Source: Streptomyces sp. NRRL S-337 (lineage in GTDB: Bacteria; Actinomycetota; Actinomycetes; Streptomycetales; Streptomycetaceae). From it: 64,000 nt of DNA. Made by a program: the position numbers and the translations under genes. The stretch lies in contig NZ_JOIX01000041.1 of the NCBI RefSeq assembly GCF_000720175.1, positions 1 through 64,000 on the forward strand, written 5' to 3'. Under the pieces are notes generated by a model. It ran no database searches. It was not told the origin of the DNA and saw nothing but the letters and a program-made list of their open reading frames with translations. Shown here in pieces: positions 848 to 43,311 of the stretch (its first letter is position 1; the number at the start of each line of letters is the position of its first letter).

Positions 848-1147
848 CCGTCCAATACCGCGTCCTTGCACTTCGTCGGCGACGAACAGCAGGTCGAGCT
901 CCGGTGGAGCGAGGACGAGCGAGTAGAACCCGAGGACCCGGCCTCCGTGCTCGTCGGCGCCGACGGCCACAAAGGCGCGGTGGGCCTCGATGTCATCAGG
1001 ACCGACCCGTTAGCCCGCGACGGCGGCTGCGTACTTGCCCTCGTAGGCGCGTGAGCCACGCACGAGCCGCGTGAGCCGTTTGGCATCCCGCGCGACGGCC
1101 CTCCGTATCGTGATCGGCCGGCTGATCGGGGAAGTGCGTGAACTCAT
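848..1147 (-). pseudogene. GNAT acetyltransferase pseudogene
   Basis: The minus strand encodes an N-terminal beta-alpha unit (ITIRRAVARDAKRLTRLV) and, in the same frame, GRVLGFYSLVLAPPELDLLF followed by VADEVQGRGIGR. The last segment is the acetyl-CoA pyrophosphate-binding motif A (R/Q-x-x-G-x-G/A) of GNAT N-acetyltransferases. Two lesions are visible. There is an in-frame TAA near 1010-1012, where one base change would restore a Tyr codon. The end after motif A is also lost, replaced by the IS transposase tail at 718-810. The substrate is unknown and the gene is not functional. Confidence 0.7.
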
Positions 1148-1319
1148 CGGAAAAGTATGTCGCATCGAGGTCCCGTCAGTATGTTCCTCGGCGGGCCTCG
1201 CCGTCTCACCCGCTAGCAAGGTCATCCCGGCAGCCGCTGTGGGGTGCCCCGCTCCGTCGGGCGGAGAGATCACACACGCAATGGATCATCTCGTTCCGCT
1301 CTCCGGGTACCGTCAAGGT

Positions 1320-3005
1320 ATGAGTCATCCGCACCCCGAATTGAAAGCCGCGCCACCCCTTCCCGAAGGAGGGCTACGGGTCATCGCCCTGGGCGGCCTG
1401 GGCGAGATCGGCCGCAACATGACCGTCTTCGAGCACGCCGGCAAACTGCTCATCGTCGACTGCGGCGTGCTCTTCCCCGAGGAGACCCAACCCGGCGTGG
1501 ACGTCATCCTGCCGGACTTCACCTCCATCCGGGACCGGCTGGACGACATCGTGGCCGTCGTCCTCACCCACGGCCACGAGGACCACATCGGCGGCGTGCC
1601 GTACCTGCTGCGTGAGCGGTCCGACATTCCCGTCGTCGGCTCCAAGCTGACGCTGGCGTTCCTGGAGGCCAAGCTCAAGGAACACGGGATCCGGCCGCGC
1701 ACGGTGCGGGTGCGGGAGGACGACCGGCGCGGCTTCGGGCCCTTCGACTGCGAGTTCGTGGCGGTCAACCACTCCATCCCGGACAGCCTCGCGGTCGCGA
1801 TCCGCACCGGTGCCGGGATGGTGCTGCACACCGGCGACTTCAAGATGGACCAGTTTCCTCTTGACGATCGCATCACCGACCTGCGCGCCTTCGCCCGCCT
1901 CGGCGAGGAGGGCGTGGACCTGTTCCTGACCGACTCCACCAACGCCGAAGTGCCCGGCTTCACCACCTCCGAGCGGGAGTTGAACCCGGCGATCGAGCAG
2001 GTGTTGCGGACCGCGCCGCGCCGGGTCATCGTCTCCAGCTTCGCCAGCCATGTGCACCGCATCCAGCAGGTTTTGGACGCCGCCCATCAGCACGGCCGCA
2101 AGGTCGCCTTCGTCGGCCGGTCCATGGTCCGCAACATGGGCATCGCCCGTGACCTGGGCTATCTGAAGGTCCCGTCCGGTCTCGTCGTCAGCACGAAGGA
2201 GCTGGAGAAACTCCCCGATCACAAGATCACTCTGGTGTGCACCGGCTCCCAGGGCGAACCGATGGCCGCGCTGTCGCGGATGGCCACCCGCGACCACATG
2301 ATCCGCATCGGCAAGGGGGACACCGTCCTGCTCGCCAGCTCGCTCATCCCCGGCAACGAGAACGCCATCTACCGGGTGATCAACGGACTCACCCGATGGG
2401 GCGCCCACGTGGTCCACAAGGGCAACGCCAAGGTGCACGTATCCGGGCACGCCAGCGCCGGCGAACTCGTCTACTGCTACAACATCGTCAAGCCGCGTAA
2501 CGTCATGCCCGTGCACGGCGAATGGCGCCACCTGCGGGCCAACGCCGACCTCGCCATCCGCACCGGCGTCGACCCCGACCGGGTCGTCATCGCCGAGGAC
2601 GGCGTCGTCGTCGACCTCGTCGACGGGCGCGCGTCGATCACCGGCAAGGTCCCCGCCGGCAACGTCTACGTGGACGGCATGGAAGTCGGCGGCGCCACCG
2701 AAGCGTCCCTCAAGGACCGCCTCACCCTCGCGGAGGAAGGCGTGGTCACGGTGGTGGCGATCGTGGACGCGGACACCGGCGCCCTCGCCGAGGCCCCCGA
2801 CTTCCTGGCCCGCGGCTTCGTCCACGACGACACCACCTTCGAGCCGGTCATCCCCGTCATCGAGAAGACCCTGGCGACAGCGGCCGAGGAAGGCGTCGGG
2901 GACCCGCGCCAACTCGAACAGCTCCTCGCCCGCGCCGTGGCGAACTGGGCGTTCCGCACCTACCGCCGCAAGCCCCTCATCATCCCCGTCATCATCGACG
3001 CCTGA
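1320..3005 (+). CDS. rnj: ribonuclease J
   Basis: A 561-residue metallo-beta-lactamase/beta-CASP ribonuclease, the usual length for RNase J. It acts in the cytoplasm in mRNA decay and rRNA and sRNA 5' processing, with both 5'-3' exonuclease and endonuclease activity. The Zn-binding motif LTHGHEDHIGG (HxHxDH) lies near residue 83, followed by HTGDFK, the beta-CASP segment with SSFASHVHR, and the C-terminal motif VSGHAS. The open frame runs back to 1071, but the ATG at 1320 (MSHPHPE) gives the family's normal N-terminus, so the earlier start is rejected. The residues upstream overlap the GNAT pseudogene and look non-coding. Confidence 0.95.
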   Translation: MSHPHPELKAAPPLPEGGLRVIALGGLGEIGRNMTVFEHAGKLLIVDCGVLFPEETQPGVDVILPDFTSIRDRLDDIVAVVLTHGHEDHIGGVPYLLRERSDIPVVGSKLTLAFLEAKLKEHGIRPRTVRVREDDRRGFGPFDCEFVAVNHSIPDSLAVAIRTGAGMVLHTGDFKMDQFPLDDRITDLRAFARLGEEGVDLFLTDSTNAEVPGFTTSERELNPAIEQVLRTAPRRVIVSSFASHVHRIQQVLDAAHQHGRKVAFVGRSMVRNMGIARDLGYLKVPSGLVVSTKELEKLPDHKITLVCTGSQGEPMAALSRMATRDHMIRIGKGDTVLLASSLIPGNENAIYRVINGLTRWGAHVVHKGNAKVHVSGHASAGELVYCYNIVKPRNVMPVHGEWRHLRANADLAIRTGVDPDRVVIAEDGVVVDLVDGRASITGKVPAGNVYVDGMEVGGATEASLKDRLTLAEEGVVTVVAIVDADTGALAEAPDFLARGFVHDDTTFEPVIPVIEKTLATAAEEGVGDPRQLEQLLARAVANWAFRTYRRKPLIIPVIIDA

Positions 3006-3059
3006 GCCACGGCCCGGCAGCACGACCTCCGGTGCTCACCAGCACGCCACTGGGGCCCG

Positions 3060-3479
3060 TCAAAAGGGGCCCCGGCCGGCGAGCTGGCCGACCATGCCCT
3101 CGGACGCTCTCGCGGCGGACTGACCACCAAGATCCACCTCGCCGCCGACAGCCGCTGCACGCCGCTGGCCTTCGTCCTCACGCCCGGCCAGGCCGGTGAC
3201 GCACCCGCATTCGAGCAGGTCATGACCCGCTTACGGGCGCCCCGGCCAATCGGCCGGCCCCGAATCACGCCGGACGTGGTCCTGGCGGACAAGGCCTACT
3301 CGTCCCGGGCGATCCGCCGTCATCTGCGACGACGCGGAATCCGGGCGGTGATCCCGCAGCCCTCCGACCAGGCCGCCAACCGCAAGCGGCTTGGCCGGCT
3401 CGGCGGCCGACCACCGTCCTTCGACCGCGAGGCCTACAAGAAGCGGAACACTGCCGAGCGGTGCATCAACAAGCTCAAG
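3060..3479 (+). pseudogene. IS5-type transposase remnant (second half), interrupted by an intron
   Basis: In one frame the sequence reads ADHALGRSRGGLTTKIHLA, VLADKAYSSRAIRRHLRRRG and NTAERCINKLK, the central and C-terminal part of an IS5-family DDE transposase. It is close to the copy at 24960-25806. The N-terminal half is absent. At 3480 the homology stops exactly where a group II intron-like sequence begins, and the expected continuation QWRGIATRY is not found downstream. Confidence 0.8.
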
Positions 3480-3790
3480 GTGCGACACGAAGTCGCACAC
3501 GTTAAGCGGGAAAGCCACGAAGGAAGGAGGGATGTGCTGACCCCGGATTAGTGTCCGTATCCCTTCCCGCGCTCACATGCGTCGCCGGTAACGGCGGGGT
3601 GCGAAGCTGAGTGTTCAAGCCCACGAGTTTTCCGACCACCGGGGAACAACAGCCGAGGGAAAAGCTGGACGGGTGAACCGCGTGAACCCTCTATGGACCG
3701 GCGGCAAAAGAAAGCAGATCTGGCTGGAGGAAATCTCCGGGAGCGCAGATGCTGAAATGAGTGTCGCGATGGGGACTTGAGATCCGAGCG
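3480..3790 (+). mobile_element. 5' fragment of a group II intron (domain I)
   Basis: The transposase coding sequence breaks at ...CTCAAG and is followed by GTGCGACACGAAGTCGCAC, which fits the GUGYG 5' splice-site consensus of bacterial group II introns and folds back on itself. The next 300 bases are rich in short complementary stretches and have no coding character. The exon end CTCAAG (3474-3479) is perfectly complementary to CTTGAG at 3776-3781, as expected for an IBS1-EBS1 pairing. A possible EBS2 is GATGC at 3748-3752, facing GCATC upstream of the junction. No reverse transcriptase, domain V or 3' exon is present before the cold-shock gene, so the element is truncated and inactive. Confidence 0.6.
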
Positions 3791-3908
3791 TCGGCCGCGG
3801 TGCAGCTCTTCAGGATTCGCCTGGCTCCTCAAGGAGCAGCTGCGCGTGGTTGGACTGCGGATTCCTCCGCGTCGTCCCGCGGGTGAATCCGCTGCGGGAG
3901 ATGCGTGC

Positions 3909-3946
3909 AGCTGGGGCCCGCACCCCGAAGGATGCGGGCCCCAGCT
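3909..3946 (-). terminator. strong hairpin terminator downstream of the cold-shock gene
   Basis: A perfect 14-bp inverted repeat, AGCTGGGGCCCGCA and its complement, is separated by a 10-base loop and lies 18 bases beyond the csp stop codon. There is no U-run, as is common for actinobacterial terminators. Confidence 0.85.
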
Positions 3947-3964
3947 ACAGATTGTGCGTGAGCG

Positions 3965-4168
3965 TCAGGCGGGAACGATGTTCTCGGCCGTCGGGCCCTT
4001 CTGGCCCTGCGCGATGTCGAAGTTGACCTTCTGACCTTCGAGCAGCTCACGGAAGCCCTGCGCAGCAATGTTCGAGTAGTGGGCGAACACGTCCGCGCCG
4101 CCACCGTCCTGCTCGATAAAGCCGAAGCCCTTTTCCGCGTTGAACCACTTCACGGTACCAGCAGCCAT
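3965..4168 (-). CDS. csp: cold-shock protein
   Basis: A 67-residue cold-shock-domain protein with both RNA-binding motifs: KGFGFI (RNP1) preceded by VKWFNAEKG, and DVFAHYS (RNP2). It binds single-stranded RNA and DNA and acts as an RNA chaperone. The open frame extends upstream to 4417, but the ATG at 4168 gives the canonical MAAGTVKWF start and is preceded by AGGAG at good spacing. The upstream 4170-4400 stretch is AT-richer than its surroundings and probably holds the promoter and a long 5' leader, as is usual for csp genes. The hairpin at 3909-3946 ends the transcript. Confidence 0.96.
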
Positions 4169-4169
4169 G

Positions 4170-4920
4170 TCACATCTCCTTTGGGGCAGTACATCGGAAT
4201 CCGCACCGTACGGACACCGTGTCGCCGCGATGATTACCCCGCCCGGAAAATGACCGGATTCACAAAAGTGCTCCCGACCGACAGAAGCCGGGTCGGGGGC
4301 ACTCGAAGTTTTGGGAACCACAACTGCAACTGAGATCGACAGTAGCACGCTGGAACAGCCTGCGCACGTTACATAATTCCCCTCCGCCCATTGCAGCAAA
4401 AACTCTTCCTGCATCATCCGTCAAACTCTCACCTCGCGGGAACAGATATTGCTTCACTCAGGTGCGATGTTTCGGAAAGAGCGGTGTCGTCAGCCGCACC
4501 CCGGGCCGCGAGGGCGGAAATCACCTACGCGGCTGTGCGCAAGATCGCCTTCAGGAGGCGCCCCCATCAGTTCGTCCCGGCGTGCCGGCGCTGCATCACG
4601 ACTCCTCCCACTGACCGCCTGAGGACCTGCATCAGCGACGGGTTGCCACGTCGGGCCGTCCAATGGGCCGTTTTGGCCGCACGCTCCTGTTGAACCAGCA
4701 ATCACCGCAGCAGTCTCGACGGAATCATGCTTGCGCCCCCCGCCTATGGGCAGCTACCGAATCCCGTCTGTGTCGAAAGCGTGAACGTCCACGAACACAC
4801 CTCCCGGGCGACGAGCCACTGAGCCAGGTAGCGGCCCAAGCCGGTCGCCCGCTCAACAGCCAGCCCTGGACGCTGCGCGCCGTCGTAACCCACCGCGCAC
4901 AGAGGATTCGCCAGGCCATC
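4170..4920. other. csp upstream region, then no recognisable gene
   Basis: The first 200 bases are relatively AT-rich and likely carry the csp promoter and leader. From about 4400 to 4920 only short open frames without family resemblance are seen; the ALF pseudogene's 3' side ends abruptly near 4925. Confidence 0.5.
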
Positions 4921-27670: not shown

Positions 27671-29176
27671 ATGGCACCCGATCCGACAATCGCCCAGGTG
27701 ACCATGACCCTGGCCGCCTTTGCAGCCACCGGAGCCACCCCGCGTCCGTCCGGGGAAACCCTGGAGCAGCAGACCCAACGAATCATCACCGGCATCGACG
27801 CGCAACTGAGCGATCGCAGCCTTGCGACGCAGGGCGCGTGGGAGCTGGTGTGGCTCGCCCTGAGCCAGGCCAACGCCAATATGGCCTACCTCGCACGGAG
27901 CACCAACGGCTCGAACGAGTTCGCCGTGGTCGCTCGCGGAACGGACGCCGATCTGACCGACATCCTCGAGGACCTCGACGTCGGCACGGTCGTCCCGTTC
28001 CCCGAAAGCGGATCGCCGAAGCCCATCACCGTTTCCAAGGGAGCGATGGATGCTTTCCAACGGGTTGTCAAAGCCCGCTCGATCGCCTCGCCCTCCCCGA
28101 ACGTCACGCTCGCTCAGGCGCTGGCCGTCGCGCTCAAGGCGGCGCCCTCCTCGCCGCAGCCGACCGTCTATCTGACCGGTCACAGCCTGGGCGGTTGCAT
28201 CGCCACCATGCTCGCGCCGTACCTGCAGGCACAGACCTTGCCGAAGCAGCCGAGGTTCGCGGTGATCACCTATGCCGCTCCCACCGCCGGCACGCAGAGC
28301 TTCGTCAACTACTTCAACTCCGTGCCGTGGATCCTCAACGAGCGCCAGAACAACGCCTACGACCTGGTACCGCACGCGTGGGCCGATCTCGACACCACCG
28401 CCGGCTGGTACCCGAGCCCGGGACCGCAGGCGACCGACGAAGTGAAGCTGCTCATCGGGACGATCTCCAAGCGCACCAAGGGCAACGTCTACGTCCAGCC
28501 CGGCACGCTCTACCCGATGAACACCGGTTACACGAGCCTTGCCAAGAACCTGGTCAACAAGACCACCCAGGACTTCCTCGGCCAGGTCGCCTTCCAGCAC
28601 GCCAACTCCACCTACCTGGACCTGGTGGGGGCGCCTGCCGTCCCCTCGCCGCCGGTGGTGACCGACATGAGCCCCACCTTCGGCGCCGCAGGCGACACGG
28701 TGACCATCAACGGCAAGGATTTCAGTCAGGACAGCAAGGTCGACTTCGGCCACTTCGCCTGCGCCGACCGCGACACCGTCATCGACCCCTCCGGCCTCAA
28801 GATCACCACCAAGGTCCCCAACGGAACGGGCGTCGTCCCCGTCCGCGTCACCAACACCCTCGGCACCTCCCCGGCCGTCGCCATGGGGCAGTTCGCCTAC
28901 GGCGGACCCGCACCGGTGGTGGTCAGTTCGGTCAGCCCGACCAGCGGAAAGGTCGGCACCCCGGTCACCATCAACGGCTCGGGCTTCGCCAAGGGCGCCA
29001 CCGTGCACTTCAAGGACAAGGCATCCGACTCGGTCACGTTCGTCTCGACCGGCCAGATCACCGCAACCGCGCCCGGTCAGCTCGACGTCCAACAGACCGT
29101 GAACGTCACCGTGACGGTCGGCAAGGCCACCTCTCCCACCAGTCCGGACGACGAGTTCACCTACACCGGACGGTAG
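27671..29176 (+). CDS. class 3 lipase-like hydrolase with two IPT/TIG domains
   Basis: A 501-residue protein. The N-terminal 320 residues form a fungal-type class 3 lipase domain with the nucleophile elbow GHSLGG (near residue 171), preceded by FAVVARGTDADLTDILEDLD and followed by AVITYAAPTAGTQSFVNYF. Two immunoglobulin-like IPT/TIG domains follow: VTDMSPTFGAAGDTVTINGK (about 335-415) and VSSVSPTSGKVGTPVTINGS (about 420-500). Such repeats usually act in surface binding. No classical signal peptide is visible, so the export route is unclear. ATG 27671 has AAGGAG upstream. It is divergent in function from the lasso cluster downstream, which is on the opposite strand. Confidence 0.85.
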   Translation: MAPDPTIAQVTMTLAAFAATGATPRPSGETLEQQTQRIITGIDAQLSDRSLATQGAWELVWLALSQANANMAYLARSTNGSNEFAVVARGTDADLTDILEDLDVGTVVPFPESGSPKPITVSKGAMDAFQRVVKARSIASPSPNVTLAQALAVALKAAPSSPQPTVYLTGHSLGGCIATMLAPYLQAQTLPKQPRFAVITYAAPTAGTQSFVNYFNSVPWILNERQNNAYDLVPHAWADLDTTAGWYPSPGPQATDEVKLLIGTISKRTKGNVYVQPGTLYPMNTGYTSLAKNLVNKTTQDFLGQVAFQHANSTYLDLVGAPAVPSPPVVTDMSPTFGAAGDTVTINGKDFSQDSKVDFGHFACADRDTVIDPSGLKITTKVPNGTGVVPVRVTNTLGTSPAVAMGQFAYGGPAPVVVSSVSPTSGKVGTPVTINGSGFAKGATVHFKDKASDSVTFVSTGQITATAPGQLDVQQTVNVTVTVGKATSPTSPDDEFTYTGR

Positions 29177-29418
29177 CGCCCGCACGCCCCGTTCCCGTAG
29201 TGACCCTTCGAGCAGCCCAGGCCCTGGCCGCCGACCGGTCGAACCGTGCCCGGGCGAGGGATCGTCGCAGGGCCGTTCGCCCTGCGGCGATCAGGCCACG
29301 GAGCTGTGCGGCACGGCGAGCAGCGCCCGGCGACCAGGCGCCCGGAGCCCCCGGAGAGACGTGCTTGTGCCGGCCGCGCGCCATCGGTGTGGGGCACGCG
29401 AAGCCGCACCCCCTGCCG

Positions 29419-31305
29419 TCACCGTGGGCCGGGCGGGGCAGGGGGTACGGCCACGGCGGGCGGCGTCGCGCCGGTCGTGCGCAGCATCTGGCCGGCGGCC
29501 AGGCGGCGGTAGACAGGGCTGGTGGTGAGCAGCTCCTCGTGGTGCCCGGCGGCAGCGGTACGGCCGTCTTCGAGCACCACGATCCGGTCGGCGTGCTGCA
29601 CCGTGGAGAGCCGGTGCGCGATCACCAGCACTGCGCACTCCTGGGCGACGTCCTTCATCACCCGGGTCAGCGCGGCCTCGTTGAGGGCGTCCAGGTGCGC
29701 GGTCGGCTCGTCGAGCAGGAGCAGTGACGGCCGTGCGAGCAGGGCACGGGCCAGGGCGACCCGTTGCCGTTCACCGCCCGACAGGGTGTTGCCGCGTTCA
29801 CCGAGCACGCCGGACAGCCCTCCGGGCAGCCGTGCCACCACTTCCTCCAACTGGGTGAGTTCGACGACCCACCGCACCTCGTCGTCGTCGGCACCAGGGA
29901 CCGCGTAGGTGAGGTTGTCCCGCAGGGTCCCGTGCACGACGTGGGTGTTCTGGTCGACGACGGCGATACGGGCCCGGCACTCCGCGCGGCCGAGGTCGGA
30001 GGCGGGCCGGCCGTCGAACAGCAGGGTCCCGGCGTCCGGTTCGTAGAACCTGGCCACCAGCGCGAAGAGCGTGCTCTTGCCCGCCCCCGACCGGCCGACC
30101 AGGGCGACCTGCCGGCGGTGCGGGACGTCGAAGGAGACCCCACGCAGCACCGGGCGGTGCGGGTGGTAGCCGAAGTGGACGTCACGCAGGACGAGCGCGG
30201 GCGCCGCGTCGCTCCCGGATCGCTCCGCCCGCCGCGATGCACGCGCACCCACGGCCGTCTCCTCCCGCTCAACGGGTTCCACGGGCAAGGTCAGCACCTG
30301 CTCGATCCGCTGGTAGGCCCCCATGCCACGTTGGATCTGGCCGACCGCCCGAAACGCCGAGGACAGTGGCAGGACCAGATAGGACGCGTACAGGAGAAAG
30401 GCCACCAGGTCGCCGAGCGAGTTGGCCCGGCCGTTCACCCGCAGACCGCCGATGACCAGGACGAGCAGGAACGAACCCTGGACGGCGAGTTCGACCGCCG
30501 GACTCATCATCGACGCCAGTTTCGCGGTCCGCACGCCCGCGCGGTACGCCGATTCGACCCGCTCCCCGATGCGCCGCGCCTCGCGGTCCTCGGCGCGGTG
30601 CACCCGCACCATCGGCAGGGCGCCGAGTGCGCGCTCCAGGTCGGCGCAGATCGCGCCGACGGAGTTCTGCATGCGCTCCGAGGCCGCCCGGATGCCCTTC
30701 AACAGCGAGGCCACCACGCCCGACGCGGCGGCGATGGTCACTGCGACCAGGAGCAGCAACAACGGGTCGAGCCACACCATGAGCACGAGCGCGCCCGTCC
30801 CGACGAGCGCACCGGACACCAGGTCCGACAGCGCCTGGGCCACCACCTCCCGCAGCAGGGTGGTGTCGGCGGTGACCCGGGAGATCAGATCACCACTGCG
30901 GTGCCGGTCGTACTCCCTCATCTCCAGCCGCAGCAGCCGCGCCACCAGGCCGTGGCGCAGTCCGCGCACCACGCCCTCCCCGGTGCGTTCCAGCAGGAAG
31001 CGTCCCACCGCGCCGGTCGCGGCTTCGGCCCCGAAGAGCGCGGTGAGCAGCACCAACAGCGGCCAGGGGACGGACCCTTGACCGCTCCCGTCCACGATGT
31101 GCTTCGCGACGAGCGGCTGGACCAGCCCGAGTCCGGAGCCGACCATGGTGAGCGCGGTCGCGACGGCGATCGAGGATCGGTGGCCCGCGGTGAGCCGGAC
31201 CAGGGTGACCACCGCGGCCCGCGTGGACCCGCCGCCGCCGGGCGGGGCAGGCATCTCCCCGCTGCGGACCTCCTCGCTGGTTCCCTCTCCGCTGGTTCCG
31301 GTCAT
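29419..31305 (-). CDS. lasD: lasso peptide ABC transporter, fused permease/ATPase
   Basis: A 628-residue half-transporter, the last gene of the lasso cluster. Residues 30-330 are the six-helix exporter domain, and the ATPase follows with Walker A VGRSGAGKST, signature LSGGERQRVALARALLA, Walker B LLLLDEPTAHLD and the H-loop IAHRLSTVQHADRI. Its probable role is export of the mature lasso peptide and self-immunity. The ATG at 31305 overlaps the B2 stop as ATGA. The extended frame to 31542 is antisense to B2's other frame and is rejected. An inverted repeat ACCCCCTGCC/GGCAGGGGGT spans the stop codon (29408-29446) and may terminate the operon. Confidence 0.92.
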   Translation of the reverse strand: MTGTSGEGTSEEVRSGEMPAPPGGGGSTRAAVVTLVRLTAGHRSSIAVATALTMVGSGLGLVQPLVAKHIVDGSGQGSVPWPLLVLLTALFGAEAATGAVGRFLLERTGEGVVRGLRHGLVARLLRLEMREYDRHRSGDLISRVTADTTLLREVVAQALSDLVSGALVGTGALVLMVWLDPLLLLLVAVTIAAASGVVASLLKGIRAASERMQNSVGAICADLERALGALPMVRVHRAEDREARRIGERVESAYRAGVRTAKLASMMSPAVELAVQGSFLLVLVIGGLRVNGRANSLGDLVAFLLYASYLVLPLSSAFRAVGQIQRGMGAYQRIEQVLTLPVEPVEREETAVGARASRRAERSGSDAAPALVLRDVHFGYHPHRPVLRGVSFDVPHRRQVALVGRSGAGKSTLFALVARFYEPDAGTLLFDGRPASDLGRAECRARIAVVDQNTHVVHGTLRDNLTYAVPGADDDEVRWVVELTQLEEVVARLPGGLSGVLGERGNTLSGGERQRVALARALLARPSLLLLDEPTAHLDALNEAALTRVMKDVAQECAVLVIAHRLSTVQHADRIVVLEDGRTAAAGHHEELLTTSPVYRRLAAGQMLRTTGATPPAVAVPPAPPGPR

Positions 31306-31736
31306 GCGTCCGTCCGGCTCACCGGCCCGACGGCCATGAGGCGGGTGAAGTAGCCGTCCGGTACCCCCTCGGCCACCGGGCGGCCCTCCGCCTCGATCCA
31401 GGCGTGCGCGGTGAACGGGGGCACCACCCGCACTCCGGTGCACCACGTGGGCCAGGTTCCGCGCAGTCGGCAGAGCAGGGCGGCACCCAGCGAGCGCGGC
31501 AGACAGCCGCGAGGGCCGGCGCACCGCAGGCTCGCCGCACACATCGCGTCCCGCGCCTCCACCGCCTGGGCGGTGGAGGCCGGAGTTGCGCCGCGGCGGA
31601 CGAGGGCGAGGACCACCCGGAGCCGGCGCGGCGGCAGGAGGGTCAGTGCCAGGGCGGGCAGCAGGACGGTGCGAGCGGCCAGCCGTCGGGTCAAGGGGAC
31701 GCCGGCCGGCCGGTCCAGTGCGCTCGGGGTCGTCAT
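31302..31736 (-). CDS. lasB2: lasso peptide leader peptidase (B2, transglutaminase-like)
   Basis: A 144-residue protein of the lasso B2 family, which removes the leader peptide. The papain/transglutaminase-like core is visible as CAGPRGCLPRSLGAALLCRL with the catalytic Cys, and FTAHAWIEAEGRPVAEGV with the catalytic His. A hydrophobic N-terminal segment (VLLPALALTLLPP) is usual for B2. It overlaps B1 and D by ATGA at both ends, so B1-B2-D are translationally coupled. Confidence 0.93.
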   Translation of the reverse strand: MTTPSALDRPAGVPLTRRLAARTVLLPALALTLLPPRRLRVVLALVRRGATPASTAQAVEARDAMCAASLRCAGPRGCLPRSLGAALLCRLRGTWPTWCTGVRVVPPFTAHAWIEAEGRPVAEGVPDGYFTRLMAVGPVSRTDA

Positions 31737-31987
31737 GCGGCCAGCCCGGACGCCCGCAGTTCCTGCACCAGGGCCGCGACGTCCTGTGCCGCCTGTGCCC
31801 GGTCGATGTCGAACCGCGCGACCAGTGCGTCGACGGCGTCCCCTTCCTCGCCGCCGTCCAGCAGGGACCTGATCACCAACGTGCCGGTGGGGTTGAGCTC
31901 CCAGTAGTCCCCGCTGCGCTCGTCGAGAAGTACGGTGCCGTAGTCGGTCTCCGCCGTGGAGACATCGGCGTTGAACCGCAGTGCCAT
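31733..31987 (-). CDS. lasB1: lasso peptide precursor recognition protein (B1, PqqD-like RRE)
   Basis: An 84-residue stand-alone RiPP recognition element. TDYGTVLLDERSGDYWELNP, then GTLVIRSLLDGG and DAVDALVARFDIDRAQAAQD, is the PqqD winged-helix pattern that binds the precursor leader (YxxP region). GGAAAGG precedes the ATG at 31987. Together with B2 it forms the split protease complex typical of actinobacterial lasso clusters. Confidence 0.93.
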   Translation of the reverse strand: MALRFNADVSTAETDYGTVLLDERSGDYWELNPTGTLVIRSLLDGGEEGDAVDALVARFDIDRAQAAQDVAALVQELRASGLAA

Positions 31988-32026
31988 GGTGAGAACCTTT
32001 CCGTCGTGGCCCGGTGAGAAGGCGCA

Positions 32027-33904
32027 CTAAGAGGCGGGCGAGACCGCGTCGTTGAGGGGGCGTGTTCCGGCGGTACGGGCGAGACCGCGCAGCCACACTT
32101 CGCAGGCGATGGTCGAGTACAGGATCGCGTCGCGCAGTCCGGGTGCGGAGGGGCGTCGGGCCAACTGCCGCAGCGCGTCGCCGTCCACCAGACCGAGCTG
32201 TTCCAGTCGGGAGTCCTCCCAGAGCGCCATCAGGTCGCCGCGGTGTTCCCGCAGCCCGTTCGAGGCGTCCATCGAGGCCTCGGCCTTGTTGCCGCGGCGC
32301 AGGCACACCTCAGGTACGACGCCCTGCATGGCGGCGGCCAGCAGGGGTTTGTAGCGCCAGGGCGTTACGCGCTCGGCGGGGCGGACCGCAAGGCATGCCT
32401 CGATCACCCGGTCGTCGAAGAAGGGCGACGCCATGGGAACCCCGGCTCTTGCGGCCATCCGGTCCCACTGCCGGATGATGCGGGTGCAGGAACGGATTTG
32501 TTCCAGGTCGGTGTGCAGCCCACGGTCCCGGTGCAGGGGCGTGGCCTGCCCGGCCGCCGCGCGCAACGCCTCCCCGGCCATCCGTTCCGCGTCAGGACTC
32601 ACCCAGTCGAACAGCCGGGGCGCCATGCCCCACCCCAGACTGCTGGCCACGGACGGCGGTTGGGGACCACGCAGCCGACTGCCGGCGTCGGCCAGCCACT
32701 TTCCGTACGGCCGGGAATCGGCCAGCGCGCGTACCGTGCCGCCGAGTGGCCACTCCCACAGGGCCCGGAACCCGCGCAGCTGGCGCAGGGCGAAGAGCGG
32801 CCGTGTCCGCAGCAACCGGTGGTAGTAGGCCTCGGAGCACCACGCCACGTGGTCGCCGCCGATACCGGTCAGATGCAGCCGGCTGCCCCGTTCGGCCAGC
32901 CCCGGCAGGTGGTGCAGTACCCGGGACCGGTCCATCACGCCGATGGTCGGTTCGTCCAGCAGATCGTCGATGTCGAGCAGGCCGGTGTAGACCAGCGGTG
33001 AGTCATCGGCGTCCCAGATGACGTGTTCGAGGTCGGGGAGAAAGCCGGCGGCCTGTTCCGCCCAGTGCAGGTCGGTGTCTGCGGGATCGCGTCCGGGCCA
33101 GGTACTGGCCACCACCCGGGCCGACGACCGTGCGGCCAGGAAACAGATGGAGGTGGAGTCCAGCCCGCCGGAAAGATCGCAACTGACCACGCCACCCTGC
33201 CGGGTGCGGGCATCCACGGCCGTGGCCAGCGCTTCCCGTACGGCGGGTGCGCCGTCGGCGAGCGAGCGCGTGGGCTCGGGCGGCGTCCACCAGCGGGACC
33301 GCCGTACGGTCCGCCCGTCCGCCGCGACGATCAACGCGTCCTGTGGCGATACGGCCGTGACCCCCGGAAACATCGGCGCCTCGAACAACGGATGAGGAAC
33401 CGGCCACAACAGCCGAACGGCCAGTTGTGCCGCGTCCGGACCGGAGCCGAGCGCGTCCGCGAGGACGTCCGCGCTGGTGGCCGCGACCTGGATGCCGTCG
33501 ACGGCGGCGTGGAACACCAGCCGGAGACCCGACGCCGTGCCCTGCACCCTGAGCTGCCCGTCGAGCGCGCCGACGAGATGGAAGCTTCCGGGAAGTGTGC
33601 GCGCCAGTTGGTCCAGCTCGGCAAGGTCCCTCAACTTGCCGGCGTGCCACCGAAGTTCGGCGGAATCGATCGGGCAGCATCCGACGACGGCGAGTGCCGC
33701 ACGGCCGGCGCGTGCGGTGACGATCTCGTCGTCATGCCAGTGACCGACCAGCCAGGGCCGGCCCGAGTCATGGGTCAGGATGCGCGTTCCTGGACGGGAG
33801 AAGGAGCAGGAGCGGGCCACGGCGGCCGCATCCGCGCGGTCGGGAAAGACCGCGAAATGCGCGTCGCCGGGGCCCGGTCCCTTGCTCTGGTGCGAGTCAG
33901 CCAT
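32027..33904 (-). CDS. lasC: lasso cyclase (asparagine synthetase homologue)
   Basis: A 625-residue protein that adenylates the Asp side chain of the core and forms the macrolactam ring. The PP-loop ATP-pyrophosphatase signature is SCDLSGGLDSTSICFLAA near residue 240, followed by LTGIGGDHVAWCSEAYYHRL and, near the end, SPFFDDRVIEACLAVRPAE. The N-terminal 200 residues resemble the class II glutaminase domain but lack the N-terminal nucleophile Cys, as in all lasso cyclases. It starts 35 bases after the precursor stop. No clear Shine-Dalgarno precedes the ATG at 33904. Confidence 0.93.
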   Translation of the reverse strand: MADSHQSKGPGPGDAHFAVFPDRADAAAVARSCSFSRPGTRILTHDSGRPWLVGHWHDDEIVTARAGRAALAVVGCCPIDSAELRWHAGKLRDLAELDQLARTLPGSFHLVGALDGQLRVQGTASGLRLVFHAAVDGIQVAATSADVLADALGSGPDAAQLAVRLLWPVPHPLFEAPMFPGVTAVSPQDALIVAADGRTVRRSRWWTPPEPTRSLADGAPAVREALATAVDARTRQGGVVSCDLSGGLDSTSICFLAARSSARVVASTWPGRDPADTDLHWAEQAAGFLPDLEHVIWDADDSPLVYTGLLDIDDLLDEPTIGVMDRSRVLHHLPGLAERGSRLHLTGIGGDHVAWCSEAYYHRLLRTRPLFALRQLRGFRALWEWPLGGTVRALADSRPYGKWLADAGSRLRGPQPPSVASSLGWGMAPRLFDWVSPDAERMAGEALRAAAGQATPLHRDRGLHTDLEQIRSCTRIIRQWDRMAARAGVPMASPFFDDRVIEACLAVRPAERVTPWRYKPLLAAAMQGVVPEVCLRRGNKAEASMDASNGLREHRGDLMALWEDSRLEQLGLVDGDALRQLARRPSAPGLRDAILYSTIACEVWLRGLARTAGTRPLNDAVSPAS

Positions 33905-33938
33905 GGATTCGATGCAACGATCCGTCAGCTGTCCGCGG

Positions 33939-34049
33939 TCAGTTCTTGCTCAGGATCAGCCGGTCGTTTCCGGAGCTGCTGAGGAGTCCGGTCTTCTTCC
34001 GGAACGTCCCCAGCCGGACGAGGGTCGGTGCTTCGTATGCCTTCTTCAT
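33939..34049 (-). CDS. lasA: lasso peptide precursor, citrulassin-like
   Basis: A 36-residue precursor with GGAGGAG ahead of the ATG. The leader (residues 1-21) carries the recognition pattern Y5-x-x-P8-x-L10-x3-G14-x5-T20, with the penultimate leader Thr required by lasso proteases. The predicted core is LLSSSGNDRLILSKN (22-36). It closely resembles the citrulassin core LLGLAGNDRLVLSKN, so the ring should join Leu1 to Asp8, and Arg9 is the residue that becomes citrulline in citrulassin A. The deiminase known for that step is encoded outside the lasso cluster, and none is seen in this window. Residues 3-5 (SSS) and Ile11 differ from citrulassin A. Confidence 0.92.
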   Translation of the reverse strand: MKKAYEAPTLVRLGTFRKKTGLLSSSGNDRLILSKN

Positions 34050-35000
34050 GACGTCTCCTCCGTCTTGCTTGCGGCCGCCTCCCTGGTACGGCCGTGAACC
34101 GGACACGCCGGCCCACGGCCGTCCCGGCGTCCAGGCCCATCGGGAGCCTGGACGAGGAGGCGGGGCGTTCGCAGACGAAGCTAGTTGCGGGCCGGTGGCC
34201 CTCTGCAACCCCCGAAAGGTAAGTATGATTTTCGGCTTAACGACAAGATGGTGGGTGCATCGAACCGCCCTGTTCATCGCTTCGTAAAAAGTGAATCCAA
34301 GTCAGCGAGTAAATTCCGCGGCAACGAAACGTTTTGAACTGGCTTCCGGAACCCGACCCTCGATCCGGTCGGAGAGAGGGCGCACGGTAGCCAAAGGTGC
34401 GCCGGCGGCCGCGCCCTCCTCGATCTCCACCGTGAAAAAGTGGCCAACGGACACCGGTGCAGTTCTCTCTCGGCCGAGGCAACTTGGTGGCTCAAGCGGG
34501 GCAGAGATGACCTCAACCGCCGGACGTATCGGCAAAGCTCAGCCCCACAGGACGAGTTGAGGCCTTTCCGTAGCGGCTCTCGGCGGTGGGACGCCGCAGC
34601 GCCGCTGCGCACCCATGATCTGCGCGACGCGGCGGAGGTGCCTGCCCCGCCTCTGGCCCTCACACATGCGCTGCACCGGCGCATGCAGGGTCTTCCCTGA
34701 AGCTCGTTCATTGAGCTGTTGACTCGCCGGCCCCGACGACACCCCTAAGACCCGGCGACCACACGCGGAAGTGTGGGTTCGGTGGAGGGATGTCCCACTG
34801 CCTTGATCACCTGTGGTGGCCAAGGTGGCGCGGCGGACCCGCAACACGTTCGATCCCGGTGTCGTTGGACCCGTGTGACGATCACCGCGATGACCGATGC
34901 GCTGGAGCGCGACCCCCGCGTGCTCGTCGCCGCATACAAGGCCGCGTCGCACCGGAACGACCGACGCCCGGGGAGGAGTGGGAGGGAGCGCCTCTCTCTG
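34050..35000. other. lasso promoter region, then no recognisable gene
   Basis: The lasA promoter should lie in 34060-34280. From 34300 to 35000 open frames exist on both strands without family resemblance. A short stretch at 34895-34970 (TDALERDPRVLVAAYKAASH) has coding-like codon use and could be a gene fragment. Confidence 0.4.
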
Positions 35001-38000
35001 TCACGCCATGCCCTGCCAGGCATCTGGGCCGAAGCTGCCCTTGATGTCAGAGGCGATCGTGGTCGCATTCACAGTGGATCGCAGTTGGTAGACGATGGTC
35101 TTCTGCACCCCTCGCACCGACAGGTGGACCGGATTCTCCCCCGGGTGTGCCCCCACGATCCGCCTGAGTTCCTTGAGCGCGGGCTCGTTGATGCGGTGGT
35201 AGGGGAACTTGAGCAGGACGGGCGCTGCGCCAGTTCGCTCCGCCGAGGCGACGTCGAGCACCTGCATCTCCTGACCGAAGATGCTGATCGTGCCGTCACG
35301 GTCGTTGATGCGGCCCTGCACGGACACCACGCTGTCTTCGACCAGAGCGCCCATGACGAGCTGGTAGGCAGCGGGGAAGAACAGGACCTCCATCGTGCCG
35401 TCACGGTCGGCGAGGTTGACGATCGCCCACGCACTGCCTTGTTTGGTCATCTTCTGTTGGACGCTGGTGATCAGACCCGACAGGCGCACGATGCCCTCGG
35501 TGCGGCCGGAGGCCAGTAGCTCAGGAATGGTGATGTCCCGGTTGGCCGAGAGGATGTGCTCGGTGCCATCCAGAGGATGCGCAGAGACGTACATCCCGAG
35601 CATCTCACGCTCGGTGGAGAGCAGCTGCTTGCGCGGCCACTCGCTGTCGTCGATGCTGAGGTCGATGCCGAACCCGGCCGAGTCATCACCGCCTTCCCCA
35701 CCAAGCCCCGCGAACAGGTCGTCCTGCCCGTAGGCGGCAGCCTTCTTCAACGGCACCACCGCGTCGATGGCCGTCTCGTGGATCGCAGTCAAGCCCTTGC
35801 GGGTGTTGCCGAGCGAATCGAAGGCTCCGGCCTTGATGAGCGATTCGACCGCCCGCTTGTTGAGCGCCGGCAGATCGGCCTTGTCGAGGAAGTCGGCGAA
35901 CGAACTGAACTTCCCCTTGGTCTTGCGGGCCGAGACGATCGCCTCGATGACGTTGTCGCCGACGTTGCGGACCGACCTCAGGCCGAAGCGCACGTCGTCG
36001 CCGACGGCCGCGAACTCCGCGACGGACTCGTTGGCGTCGGGCTGAAGGACGGTGACGCCGAGCTTGCGGGCGTCTGCCAGGTAGATGCCGGCCTTGTCCT
36101 TGTCGTCTCCGACGGATGTCAGGAGGGCGGCCATGTACTCGGCCGGGTAGTTCGCCTTTAGGTAGGCGGTCCAGTAGCTGACCAAGCCGTATCCGGCGGT
36201 GTGACTTTTGTTGAAGGCGTACCCGGAGAAGGGCAACATGACGTCCCAGATGGCCTTGATGGCCTCTTCCGAGTAGTCGTTGGCCTTCATGCCGCCGTGG
36301 AACTTCTCCCACTCCGCGGCCAGCACCTCGGGCTTCTTCTTGCCCATCGCGCGGCGCAGCATGTCGGCGCCGCCGAGCGTGTACCCGGCGAGGGTCCGGG
36401 CGATGGCCATGATCTGCTCTTGGAAGATGAGCAGGTGGTGGGTGGAGCCCAGGATCGGGTCGAGGACTTCCTTCAACTCCGGGTGGATCGGGTCGGGCTC
36501 CTGCTTACCGTTCTGCCTCAACGCGTAGTTGGTGTGCGCGTTGGCGGCCATCGGGCCGGGCCGGTACAGGGCGAGGGCCGCCGCGATGTCCTCGAACCGG
36601 GACGGCTCCATGAGCTTCAGCAGGGCGCGCATGCCGCCGCCGTCGAGCTGGAAGACACCGAAGGTGTCGCCCCGGCCGAGGAGTTCGAAGGTCTTCTTGT
36701 CATCGAGGGGGATGACGACCGTTTCTGTGTCGCCGTCCATCGGATCGACGCAGGCGAGCTTGACCCCGCGGTTCTCGCGGATGTTGTGGATGGCGTGGTC
36801 GATGACGCCCAGGTTCCGCAGGCCCAGGAAGTCCATCTTGACCAACCCCATGTTTTCGCAACTGGGGTAGTCAAATCCGGTGATCTTGACGCCGTCCTTG
36901 GCCCGCATGTGCAGCGGGATGCGCTCGGTCAGCTTGGTCTTGGACAGGATGACCGCGGCTGCGTGCACACCGGTACCACGCGTCAGGCCCTCGACACCTT
37001 TGGCGGTGTCGATGACCTTCTGGACGTCCGGCTCGTTCTCGTACATCTGCCGGATCTCGCCGCACTCGCCGTACCGCGGGTGCTCGGGATCGAAGATTCC
37101 ATCCAGAGGGATCGACTTGCCCATGATGTCTTCGGGCAGGGCCTTCGTGATCCGCTCCCCGTGCTGGAACGGGTAGCCGAGGATGCGCGAGCTGTCCTTG
37201 ATCGCGTTCTTGGCCTTGATCTTGCCGAACGTGTTCACCATGGCGGTGTAGGCATCACCGTATTTCTCGGTGACGTAGCGCACCATCTTGTCGCGCTGGC
37301 GGTCGTCGAAGTCGAGGTCGACATCCGGCGGGTTGATGCGCTCAGGGTTGAGGAACCGCTCGAAAAGCAAGCCGTGCTCCAGCGGGCACAGCTCCGTGAT
37401 GCGGGTCGCGTACGCCACGATCGAGCCGGTGGCCGAGCCACGGCCCGGACCGACCGGCACTCCGTTCTCGCGTGCGTACTTGCAGATATCCGCGACGACG
37501 AGGAAGTAGGAGGAGAAACCCATCGGACCGATGACCGACATCTCGGTCTCGAACCGCTCCATGACCTCGGCCGGGGTCGGGGCGCCGTAGCGCCTGGCGA
37601 GACCCTTCAGGCACTCCTTGCGCAGCCATGACTCCTGTGTCTCCCCCTCCGGCACGTCGGGGAACTGCGGCATCTCATCGACGTTGTCGAAGACCTCGTC
37701 GTACGACTCGACGCGCTCCGCGATCAGCAGCGTGTTGTCGCACGCCTCAGCCAACTCGGAGAACAGCCCGCGCATCTCGGTAGCGGTCTTGAGGTAGTAG
37801 TCGTTGCCCGAGAAGCGGAACCGTTTCTCGTCGGCCTTGTTCTTGCCGACACCGATGCACAGCAGATTGTCGTGCGCGTCTGCCTGGTCCGCGTGGATGT
37901 AGTGCGCGTCATTGGTGGCCAGGAGCGGGATGCTCAGCTCGTTGGCCAGTCGCATCAGGCCGTCCCGGACCTGCCGCTCGATGGACAGGCCGTGGTCCAT

Positions 38001-38600
38001 CAGCTCCAGGAAGTAGTTCGCCCGGCCGAAAATGTCCTGGTAGGCGGAGGCGACCTCGCGCGCCTTGTCGTACTGGTTCAGGCGCAGCCGGGTCTGGATC
38101 GCGCCGGAGGGGCATCCGGTCGTCGCGATGATGCCCTCGGCGTGCTCGCTGATCAGTTCCATGTCCATCCGCGGCTTGCCGGCCGGGAACTGGCCGGTGT
38201 ACGACGCCTCGGTGGACAGGTAGAAGAGATTGCGCAGACCCTGGACGTTCTCGGCCCACATGGTCATGTGGGTGAAGCGGCCCCCACCCGAGACGTCCTT
38301 CGATCCCTCTCCGTCGTCGGACATGGCGCGCTGCCCGCCAGGGCCCCAGAACTCCTGCTTGCGGTTGCGGCGCGAGGAAGGAGCGACGTACGCCTCGATC
38401 CCGATGATCGGCTTGACGTTCTCGAAGCCCTTGGACACCTGGTGGAACTCATACGCACCGAACATGTTGCCGTGGTCGGACATCGCCACTGCCGGCATGC
38501 CCTGACGGTCCACTTCAGCGAACATCGGCTTCAGCTTCTGGGCACCATCGAGCATCGAGTATTCGGTGTGATTGTGCAGGTGAACAAAGCTGTCGGACAC
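35001..38600 (-). CDS. dnaE: DNA polymerase III alpha subunit
   Basis: A 1199-residue DnaE1-type replicative polymerase. The N-terminal PHP domain begins with FVHLHNHTEYSMLDGAQKLK. The polymerase core has GPGRGSATGSIVAYA and the catalytic PDVDLDFDD near residue 425, plus KIKAKNAIKD and FNKSHTAGYGLVSYWTAYLK. It ends with the helix-hairpin-helix (IKAGAFDSLGNTRKGL), an OB-fold (VRLSGLITSVQQKMTKQG) and a short C-terminal domain. The start is GTG at 38600 with GGAGGT upstream. The protein looks intact. It lies alone between IS debris and a plasmid-type ParA module instead of in a core-gene setting, so it may be a second dnaE copy. Confidence 0.95.
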   Translation of the reverse strand: MSDSFVHLHNHTEYSMLDGAQKLKPMFAEVDRQGMPAVAMSDHGNMFGAYEFHQVSKGFENVKPIIGIEAYVAPSSRRNRKQEFWGPGGQRAMSDDGEGSKDVSGGGRFTHMTMWAENVQGLRNLFYLSTEASYTGQFPAGKPRMDMELISEHAEGIIATTGCPSGAIQTRLRLNQYDKAREVASAYQDIFGRANYFLELMDHGLSIERQVRDGLMRLANELSIPLLATNDAHYIHADQADAHDNLLCIGVGKNKADEKRFRFSGNDYYLKTATEMRGLFSELAEACDNTLLIAERVESYDEVFDNVDEMPQFPDVPEGETQESWLRKECLKGLARRYGAPTPAEVMERFETEMSVIGPMGFSSYFLVVADICKYARENGVPVGPGRGSATGSIVAYATRITELCPLEHGLLFERFLNPERINPPDVDLDFDDRQRDKMVRYVTEKYGDAYTAMVNTFGKIKAKNAIKDSSRILGYPFQHGERITKALPEDIMGKSIPLDGIFDPEHPRYGECGEIRQMYENEPDVQKVIDTAKGVEGLTRGTGVHAAAVILSKTKLTERIPLHMRAKDGVKITGFDYPSCENMGLVKMDFLGLRNLGVIDHAIHNIRENRGVKLACVDPMDGDTETVVIPLDDKKTFELLGRGDTFGVFQLDGGGMRALLKLMEPSRFEDIAAALALYRPGPMAANAHTNYALRQNGKQEPDPIHPELKEVLDPILGSTHHLLIFQEQIMAIARTLAGYTLGGADMLRRAMGKKKPEVLAAEWEKFHGGMKANDYSEEAIKAIWDVMLPFSGYAFNKSHTAGYGLVSYWTAYLKANYPAEYMAALLTSVGDDKDKAGIYLADARKLGVTVLQPDANESVAEFAAVGDDVRFGLRSVRNVGDNVIEAIVSARKTKGKFSSFADFLDKADLPALNKRAVESLIKAGAFDSLGNTRKGLTAIHETAIDAVVPLKKAAAYGQDDLFAGLGGEGGDDSAGFGIDLSIDDSEWPRKQLLSTEREMLGMYVSAHPLDGTEHILSANRDITIPELLASGRTEGIVRLSGLITSVQQKMTKQGSAWAIVNLADRDGTMEVLFFPAAYQLVMGALVEDSVVSVQGRINDRDGTISIFGQEMQVLDVASAERTGAAPVLLKFPYHRINEPALKELRRIVGAHPGENPVHLSVRGVQKTIVYQLRSTVNATTIASDIKGSFGPDAWQGMA

Positions 38601-41406: not shown

Positions 41407-43311
41407 ATGAGAAGACCCCTGCTGCCGGCGATACTCGTCGGGGCGCTGTTACTCGGAGTGCTCGGCGCGTCCGAAGCAGGCGCGTCGACGGCCCCGCGCC
41501 CCGCCCCGCCGTCGGTCGGCAAGCCGAAAGCCCTCATCGATTCGTGGCGTCCACCCCTCAGCACCCGGGGCCGCTACATCGTCGACGCCGACGGCAATCG
41601 CTTCAAGCTCAAGTCGGCCAACTGGCATGGTGCCCAGGGCTCCTGGAACGGATCCGGAGACATCACCGACCCGGCGAACCACCACGACGGCGAGAAGTCC
41701 GACCAGATGCCGCTCGGCCTGGACCGCGCTCCGATACCGAAGATCCTCGCTGGATTCCACGAACTCGGCATCAACAGCATCCGGCTGCCGTTCTCGAACG
41801 AGATGCTGCACGACAAGCGCCCCGTCCCCGACTCCTCAGTCGCCGCCAACCCTCAACTGCGCGGCAAGACCCCGCTCCAGGTCCTCGACGCGGTGGTCGA
41901 CGCCACCACCGCGGAAGGCTTCGCGGTGGTGCTCAACAACCACACCAACACGTCGCGTTTCTGCTGCGGCCTGGACGGCAACGAACGCTGGAACACCAGT
42001 CAGTCCACCGCTCGATGGGAGGACGACTGGATCTCGCTCGCCCGCCGCTATAAGGGCAACAAGCGCGTCGTCGGAGCCGACCTCTACAACGAGGTCCGCC
42101 GGACCGTCACTGACGACGCCAACTGGAACTGGGGTGACAGCCACGACTGGTGGGCTGCCTCCCAGCACCTCGGCGACCGTCTGCTCATCGAGGCCAATCC
42201 CGATCTGCTGGTGGTCGTCGAGGGAATCAACTGGCAAGGAATCCCGGCCGACGGACTGTTCCACTGGCGGCCGACGCTCGAACCGGTACGCACTCTGTCG
42301 CACACCCTCGTCGCCTCGAACAAGCTGGTGTACTCGGCGCATTTCTACGGCTACACGGGACCGAACCACACCGGCGCGACCGGAATGGGCGAGACCCACG
42401 ACCCGCGCTACCAGGAACTCTCCCGCGAGGATCTCTTCGCGACCCTGCAGCGCCAGGCGTTCTACGTCACCGAGGCCGGACGCCACTACACCGCGCCTCT
42501 GTGGATCAGCGAGTTCGGCATCGGCAGGGAAGAGACGAACCCGCAGGCCCGAGCCTGGTTCGGTAACTTCGTCGACTACCTGATCGACCAGGACACCGAC
42601 TTCGCCTTCTGGCCCCTGGTCGGATGGACCGGCCACGGAACCTGGCCGCTGATCAACTTCGACACCGCCGGACGGCGTTCCGGCATCCTGGACGGCGGTG
42701 ACTGGCGCACGGCCGACTGGAAGCGTCTGGTGGGCGCGCCCCAGAAGACGGGGCAGATCGCCGACTCCGACACCTGGGACATGCTGAACCTCGACCACGC
42801 CGACGCGGTCCAGTCGGCGCGGGTACGGAAGCATGGGGACTGGGACCCGGGAGCACGCAAGGGGGTCTGCCCCGACGGACAGCGCCTCATCGGTCTGGCA
42901 CACCGTGACGGGCGTGGCCTGTGTACCGACGCCGGAGCCGCCGGGCTCGCCGGGCCCGACCCGGTGCTGAGCGTCGTGCACGACGAACGCCATGTCCAGC
43001 AGGGCGACTGGGCGCGTGGCTACACCAAGTACCAGTGCGGGCCCGGCCAGTTCATGATCGGCTACAGCGTGCGCGGCCAAGCGGTCTCGGGCGTGTTGTG
43101 CGCCGAGGCGAGCAGTGCACTCAGCACGGACGGCCGTACCGTCTGGTTCGACCGAAGCGACGACCGCCCGGCCGGGGGCCCGGGCGGCGAGTTCGCGCAG
43201 GGCACCTACAAGGGTCAGTGCCGAACCGACGAGTTCGCGGCTGGCATCGCCTTCACCCACGCGTGGGTGAAGGGCGGGACACCGGACGCCCTGCTGTGCC
43301 GCAAGCTCTGA
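41407..43311 (+). CDS. secreted GH5 cellulase-like glycoside hydrolase
   Basis: A 634-residue protein with a Sec signal peptide (LPAILVGALLLGVLGASEAG, cleavage near residue 26). The (beta/alpha)8 GH5 domain spans about 45-450: KSANWHG, INSIRLPFSNEML, VVLNNHTNTS, VGADLYNEV with the acid/base Glu229, and LWISEFGIG with the nucleophile Glu369. The residues after 450 form a domain containing repeated CPDGQRLIGLAH, CGPGQFMIGYSV and CRTDEFAAGIAF segments. These are three related Cys-containing units, perhaps a carbohydrate-binding module. It degrades a beta-1,4-glucan outside the cell. Confidence 0.9.
   Translation: MRRPLLPAILVGALLLGVLGASEAGASTAPRPAPPSVGKPKALIDSWRPPLSTRGRYIVDADGNRFKLKSANWHGAQGSWNGSGDITDPANHHDGEKSDQMPLGLDRAPIPKILAGFHELGINSIRLPFSNEMLHDKRPVPDSSVAANPQLRGKTPLQVLDAVVDATTAEGFAVVLNNHTNTSRFCCGLDGNERWNTSQSTARWEDDWISLARRYKGNKRVVGADLYNEVRRTVTDDANWNWGDSHDWWAASQHLGDRLLIEANPDLLVVVEGINWQGIPADGLFHWRPTLEPVRTLSHTLVASNKLVYSAHFYGYTGPNHTGATGMGETHDPRYQELSREDLFATLQRQAFYVTEAGRHYTAPLWISEFGIGREETNPQARAWFGNFVDYLIDQDTDFAFWPLVGWTGHGTWPLINFDTAGRRSGILDGGDWRTADWKRLVGAPQKTGQIADSDTWDMLNLDHADAVQSARVRKHGDWDPGARKGVCPDGQRLIGLAHRDGRGLCTDAGAAGLAGPDPVLSVVHDERHVQQGDWARGYTKYQCGPGQFMIGYSVRGQAVSGVLCAEASSALSTDGRTVWFDRSDDRPAGGPGGEFAQGTYKGQCRTDEFAAGIAFTHAWVKGGTPDALLCRKL

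What the first reader, a model, noticed from the sequence alone, without database searches (positions are those of the whole stretch)
29419..34049. Complete lasso peptide cluster predicting a new citrulassin-type core
Seen: genes in the order precursor, cyclase, RRE, protease, ABC exporter with ATGA coupling of B1-B2-D. The predicted core LLSSSGNDRLILSKN shares GNDRL and LSKN with citrulassin A (LLGLAGNDRLVLSKN), while loop residues 3-5 are SSS. Known: Arg9 of citrulassin is converted to citrulline by a deiminase encoded elsewhere in the genome. Inference: the strain makes a citrulassin variant with an unusually polar ring. No deiminase is seen in this window.
Basis: partly seen in the sequence, partly recalled or inferred. 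Interest (0 to 1): 0.85.

Follow-up and report, generated by a model that had tools for sequence, protein, structure and literature searches.

The report
Citrulassin-type lasso cluster, already catalogued core
The stretch encodes a complete and ordinary set of genes for making a knotted "lasso" peptide of the citrulassin type; its peptide sequence is already listed in a 2026 paper, this genome appears to lack the enzyme that would give it the unusual citrulline, and the gene set seems to have arrived by horizontal transfer onto a plasmid-like contig.

Summary
A polar ring is not rare: 11 of 81 loci have only S/T/N/Q at positions 3-5. PF03068 (PAD) has no match in the window's genome; it rings in 49 of 295 Streptomyces genomes, in the citrulassin A strain B-3066, and not in the des-citrulassin D strain NRRL B-16271. 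The likeliest product is therefore an Arg9 des-citrulassin. The host's chromosomal dnaE region is 96% identical to S. nigrescens, whose operon is at most 89.5% identical to this one. This points to horizontal acquisition as a cassette. Overall: a known kind with a catalogued core; modest interest.

The parts
33939..34049 (-). precursor peptide A: leader MKKAYEAPTLVRLGTFRKKTG + core LLSSSGNDRLILSKN
   Evidence: PF19397 and NF033521 over cut-off; precursors 60-97% identical in 34 other Streptomyces genomes
32027..33904 (-). lasso cyclase C (asparagine-synthetase-like, SGGLDS motif)
   Evidence: PF00733 163.6 bits; 96% aa to the S. lydicus copy
31733..31987 (-). B1, PqqD-like leader-recognition element (RRE)
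   Evidence: NF033530 116.1 bits over cut-off 70
31302..31736 (-). B2, leader peptidase (transglutaminase-like; CLPRS, AHAW)
   Evidence: NF033537 110.4 bits over cut-off 33; ATGA overlap with B1
29419..31305 (-). D, ABC exporter (fused membrane and ATPase domains)
   Evidence: PF00664 and PF00005 over cut-off; ATGA overlap with B2
34178..34208 (-). promoter-like element TTGCAG-N19-TAGCTT
   Evidence: position checked; TAGCT aligned at this place in 16 of 22 upstream regions, counted by eye (output partly cut); promoter role inferred, not tested, promoter scan not run
29358..34570 (.). whole cassette: block 95.0% identical to S. lydicus ISP-5461 with no similarity directly beyond either end

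Best explanation
An intact citrulassin-type class II lasso peptide operon, acquired as a unit of about 5.2 kb by horizontal transfer. B1 binds the leader and B2 cuts after Gly21. C activates Asp8 and joins it to the Leu1 amine around the tail (8-residue ring). D exports the product. This genome has no PF03068 peptidyl arginine deiminase, so the product is most likely the Arg9 form (des-citrulassin; computed [M+2H]2+ 799.9467) and not the citrulline form (800.4387). Gene content, PAD absence from the assembly and homology are shown; the enzymatic steps are inferred from the family; production is untested.
For: Families and motifs. Related clusters: of 80 named loci, tblastn finds C in 80, B1 in 79, B2 in 78 and D in 68 (two of these partial; some contigs end early); a citrulassin-type precursor in 80 of 80, among them strain B-3066 with LLGLAGNDRLVLSKN (L102). 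PAD: 0 of 1 in the own genome, with the profile shown to work: 49 of 295 Streptomyces (own included in the 295); B-3066 positive (G332) and S. katrae NRRL B-16271 negative (G309), the latter a native des-citrulassin D producer per PMC9266682 (passage). Published Table 1 marks the same core PAD-negative. Horizontal acquisition: cluster 95.0% identical to S. lydicus, and 89.5% (4.1 kb) and 86.6% (0.8 kb) to S. nigrescens, while the own chromosomal dnaE region is 96.5% and 96.4% to S. nigrescens and 88.4% and 86.9% to S. lydicus. Each of the five genes is nearer to S. lydicus. The mass script reproduces the published calculated citrulassin N ion 820.9519.
Against: The genome is a 227-contig draft, so a PAD gene could sit in a gap, though completeness is given as 100. 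One published citrulassin producer lacked pad (passage). Two agmatine-deiminase-family proteins and an arginine deiminase are present and could in principle act. Expression is unknown. The chromosomal yardstick is one region in three genomes. No significant terminal repeat was found at the ends. S. lydicus and S. nigrescens copies also lack shared flanks although their clusters differ about as much as their dnaE regions, so lost flanks alone do not prove transfer.
Confidence: 0.85

Rival explanations
1. The strain makes the citrulline form, using another deiminase (for example the agmatine-deiminase-family protein L124) or a PAD missed by the draft assembly.
For: Own genome holds two PF04371 proteins and one ADI; one published producer had no pad (passage).
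Against: Both PF04371 proteins match only agmatine deiminase models in NCBIfam, below cut-off (best 325.3 of 483 and 293.3 of 483). L125 scores over cut-off as arginine deiminase (520.7, cut-off 414) and lies beside an ornithine-carbamoyltransferase-like ORF (recognised by eye). Assembly completeness 100.
Confidence: 0.1
2. The cluster was inherited vertically with its chromosome and only the neighbours were rearranged or lost.
For: S. lydicus and S. nigrescens copies differ (89.6% and 89.2% identity) about as much as their dnaE regions (88.0%), although their flanks are not shared either.
Against: The own copy is nearer to S. lydicus although the own dnaE region is much nearer to S. nigrescens; no shared flanks with either.
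Confidence: 0.12
3. The operon is silent or non-functional in this strain.
Against: All five ORFs intact with motifs, a promoter-like element shared with relatives and a GGAGGAG ribosome-binding-type site before the precursor.
Confidence: 0.2

Closest known systems
Streptomyces sp. NRRL S-337 predicted core (PMC12971885, Table 1)
   Same: identical core LLSSSGNDRLILSKN; PAD marked absent
   Different: nothing seen; whether it is the same strain as the window could not be determined
Citrulassin N, Streptomyces sp. NAX00255 (PMC12971885)
   Same: same ring size, Asp8, genetically encoded Arg9, same tail; polar ring residues QSS
   Different: Gln3 instead of Ser3; that strain has PAD and its product carries citrulline
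S. lydicus NRRL ISP-5461 locus (L043) and S. nigrescens HEK616 locus (L044)
   Same: operon 95.0% and 86.6-89.5% identical; both genomes PAD-negative
   Different: Asn3 instead of Ser3 (AAC against AGC in the gene); unrelated flanks
Citrulassin A, strain B-3066 (L102; equated by strain number and core)
   Same: GNDRL and LSKN; cyclase 76% aa
   Different: ring residues GLA, Val11; PAD present (G332); no relative of D found within the locus

Membership tests
class II lasso peptide cluster | precursor + cyclase (C) + RRE (B1) + peptidase (B2) | tested here: met
   C by PF00733 only, its NCBIfam model is below cut-off
citrulassin-type precursor family | MKKAYEAP-type leader, ring-closing Asp8, Arg9, GNDRL...SKN | tested here: met
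   81 of 81 loci share Asp8 and Arg9
citrulassin (citrulline-bearing product) | PF03068 PAD elsewhere in the genome | tested here: not met
   0 of 1 own genome; positive controls
citrulassin (citrulline-bearing product) | citrulline at position 9 of the product | not testable with these tools
   needs mass spectrometry; masses
lasso topology | tail threaded through the Leu1-Asp8 ring | not testable with these tools
   needs NMR or protease and heat tests on the product
plasmid-borne cluster | contig belongs to a plasmid | tested here: inconclusive
   window dnaE 81.6-86.2% identical to dnaE regions of the 15 plasmid records listed and 55% aa to the dnaE on own contig C40; no PLSDB record covers 80% of any queried stretch; replication and partition genes were not sought
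transposon or integrative element | terminal repeats or target duplication at the cassette ends | tested here: not met
   best inverted match equalled by 19 of 395 random pairs, best direct match by 197 of 599; genes for an integrase or transposase next to the ends were not sought separately

The most novel reading that the evidence does not exclude
The citrulassin operon behaves as a mobile 'promoter-to-exporter' cassette of about 5 kb that moves repeatedly between unrelated sites, chromosomes and large plasmids, apart from the PAD gene; whether a strain makes a citrulassin or a des-citrulassin would then depend on which genome the cassette lands in.
Probability: 0.45. Interest if true: 0.45.

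Novelty: already known. Interest (0 to 1): 0.27.

Why it matters
The core adds nothing new to the catalogue. The useful part is a natural test case: a PAD-negative host whose operon seems to come from another lineage. Together with PAD-positive strains carrying near-identical cores (citrulassin N), it would let one ask what the citrulline is for. It also suggests why cluster and PAD are unlinked: the cluster may move without it.

Tried and rejected
Rejected: the core as new; the ring as unusually polar; a link between PAD presence and ring residues 3-5 (looked at by eye, no clear difference, no statistical test).

Not readable: the primary papers Harris 2020 and Tietz 2017, so the catalogue check rests on PMC12971885 (parts 1-3 of 4), passages of PMC9266682 and of PMC8498205, and the string search. 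Cores printed only in supplements or unheld papers were not seen.

Full report
What is there. On the minus strand, in order, lie precursor (33939-34049), cyclase (32027-33904), PqqD-like RRE (31733-31987), transglutaminase-like peptidase (31302-31736) and ABC exporter (29419-31305). The start codons of B2 and D overlap the preceding stop codons as ATGA. Precursor, B1, B2 and D reach curated cut-offs in Pfam or NCBIfam. The cyclase does so for PF00733 but not for its nearest NCBIfam model, NF033561 (243.1 of 300 bits). Motifs SGGLDS (C), CLPRS and AHAW (B2), GRSGAGKS and LSGGE (D) are present.

Relatives. One scan of genome contigs with the cyclase gave 108 relatives, of which the best 80 loci were kept. 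In these 80, tblastn with the window's proteins finds C in 80, B1 in 79, B2 in 78 and D in 68 (L050 and L085 partial); some of the gaps are contig ends, others, such as L102, are not. A citrulassin-type precursor lies upstream of the cyclase in 81 of 81 loci, the window included, all with Asp8 and Arg9. One search, with a stricter pattern, had missed 22 of the loci L013-L122; one search recovered the 22. The window's core occurs once among the 81 and in no other locus. Of the 37 precursor matches in the 295-genome panel, 7 were given no locus and their cores were not read; none of the matches outside the own genome is 100% identical. Positions 3-5 consist only of S, T, N or Q in 11 of 81 loci, so the polar ring is a minority form and not an oddity.

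The core is in print. PMC12971885 (Front Microbiol, 24 Feb 2026; parts 1-3 of 4 read) lists LLSSSGNDRLILSKN in Table 1 for Streptomyces sp. NRRL S-337, with the PAD column 'N'. It is the one paper in the held library that contains the string. That paper reports 34 clusters and 15 strains with PAD, and isolated citrulassin N (LLQSSGNDRLILSKN, citrulline at 9; MIC 40 ug/ml on S. aureus, above 50 on the other three strains). Whether the window comes from NRRL S-337 cannot be told from these tools.

Deiminase. PMC9266682 (passages) reports that PAD, encoded far from the cluster, makes the citrulline; that strains lacking pad correlate with Arg-bearing des-citrulassins; that pad was found in the citrulassin producers with one exception; and that S. 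katrae NRRL B-16271 is a native des-citrulassin D producer. PF03068 finds nothing in the window's genome (9.06 Mb, 227 contigs, completeness 100). That search alone proves little, as its 14 control genomes were silent too. The profile is sound, though: it rings in 49 of 295 genomes of the genus, own included, in strain B-3066, which carries the citrulassin A core (L102 in G332), and not in NRRL B-16271 (L058 in G309). Among the genomes of the named loci, 15 of 39 and 8 of 37 are positive; L094, L100 and L101 lay in genomes not held and were not searched. In the 295-genome panel, 12 of 35 genomes with a precursor match and 37 of 260 without have a PAD match (odds ratio 3.1, Fisher p = 0.006); counting only the stronger PAD class, 11 of 35 and 31 of 260 (odds ratio 3.4, p = 0.0075) (not corrected for relatedness). 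So PAD is commoner in genomes with the cluster, but 23 of these 35 lack it. The own genome has two PF04371 proteins (NCBIfam matches: agmatine deiminase models, below cut-off) and one arginine deiminase. The likeliest product is the Arg9 form. Computed [M+2H]2+ are 799.9467 (Arg9) and 800.4387 (Cit9); the same script gives 820.9519 for citrulassin N, as published.

Where the cluster came from. The block 29358-34570 is 95.0% identical to S. lydicus NRRL ISP-5461 and stops sharply at both ends. Against S. nigrescens HEK616 it is 89.5% over 4.1 kb and 86.6% over a further 0.8 kb. The tested flanks of the three copies share nothing. In S. nigrescens the cluster lies on the chromosome near 4.03 Mb, whereas the best matches to the window's neighbouring dnaE (80%) and lipase gene (71%) lie on its 1.07-Mb second replicon (listed as plasmid NZ_AP026074.1). 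The window's dnaE is 55% aa identical to the dnaE on own contig C40, and 81.6-86.2% identical in DNA to the dnaE regions of the 15 plasmid records listed. Around the dnaE on C40 the own genome is 96.5% and 96.4% identical to the S. nigrescens chromosome and 88.4% and 86.9% to S. lydicus, in long colinear stretches. Gene by gene, the five cluster genes are nearer to S. lydicus (95.3-96.4%) than to S. nigrescens (89.4-93.3%). This conflict, the plasmid-like surroundings and the sharp edges make horizontal acquisition the best reading. The yardstick is one chromosomal region in three genomes. Against over-reading: no PLSDB plasmid holds 80% of the cluster (0 of 210 matching records), and records near the window's genome may be left out of that collection.

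A family-wide hint. Among pairs of the 81 loci with cyclase-region DNA identity of 85% or more and both flanks measurable, 114 of 137 share under 10% of both flanks (2 of 3 at 95% or more, 3 of 6 at 90-95%, 109 of 128 at 85-90%), while 17 of 137 share at least half of the upstream and 22 of 137 at least half of the downstream flank. Pairs are not independent, and pairs with a short flank were left out. In many pairs without shared flanks similarity ends about 320-400 bases before the precursor start and about 4.5-4.7 kb after it (over 151 of 183 pairs the deciles run from -388 to -18 and from 2954 to 4630, so the left edge is not one fixed point). No terminal repeats or target duplications were found at the window's edges. 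The edges may therefore be set by selection for promoter plus operon and not by a dedicated element. Searches listed no paper on this, but the primary citrulassin papers are not held.

Verdict. A real, intact, well-understood kind of cluster. The core is already catalogued, the citrulline is unlikely, and the mobile-cassette pattern is the part worth a follow-up.

Noticed in passing
window 35001-38600 (-): A second dnaE (DNA polymerase III alpha), 55% aa to the dnaE on own contig C40 and 81.6-86.2% DNA identity to dnaE regions of the 15 plasmid records listed; in 7 of these 15 a DUF6300 gene is named under the same match. Its role on plasmids is unclear to me.
   Followed up: partly
window 1071-3005 (+): Ribonuclease J-like protein (PF22505 over cut-off); matching ribonuclease J genes are annotated on plasmids of Arthrobacter, Georgenia, Cellulosimicrobium and Tsukamurella.
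   Followed up: no
window 27671-29176 (+): Class 3 lipase with TIG domains directly beside the cassette; 71% identical DNA on the S. nigrescens second replicon.
   Followed up: partly
window 41407-43311 (+): Glycosyl hydrolase family 5 (cellulase) protein.
   Followed up: no
G000 C1:279594-281520 and C31:161-403: Two further lasso B2-like (PF13471) matches in the same genome; just before the one on C1 lie DNA matches to parts of the cyclase and B1, so a second, different lasso cluster is likely there.
   Followed up: no
L124:21-1316 (G000 C50 start): Agmatine-deiminase-family protein with what looks like a Tat signal (RRGFM); the ORF begins with MGSEMCIRDS near the contig end, which I recall as a sequencing-adapter artefact.
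   Followed up: no
L048 and L049 (S. ficellus AS11); G006, G250: Some genomes carry two citrulassin-type clusters (S. ficellus, different cores) or two precursor matches (G006, G250).
   Followed up: no
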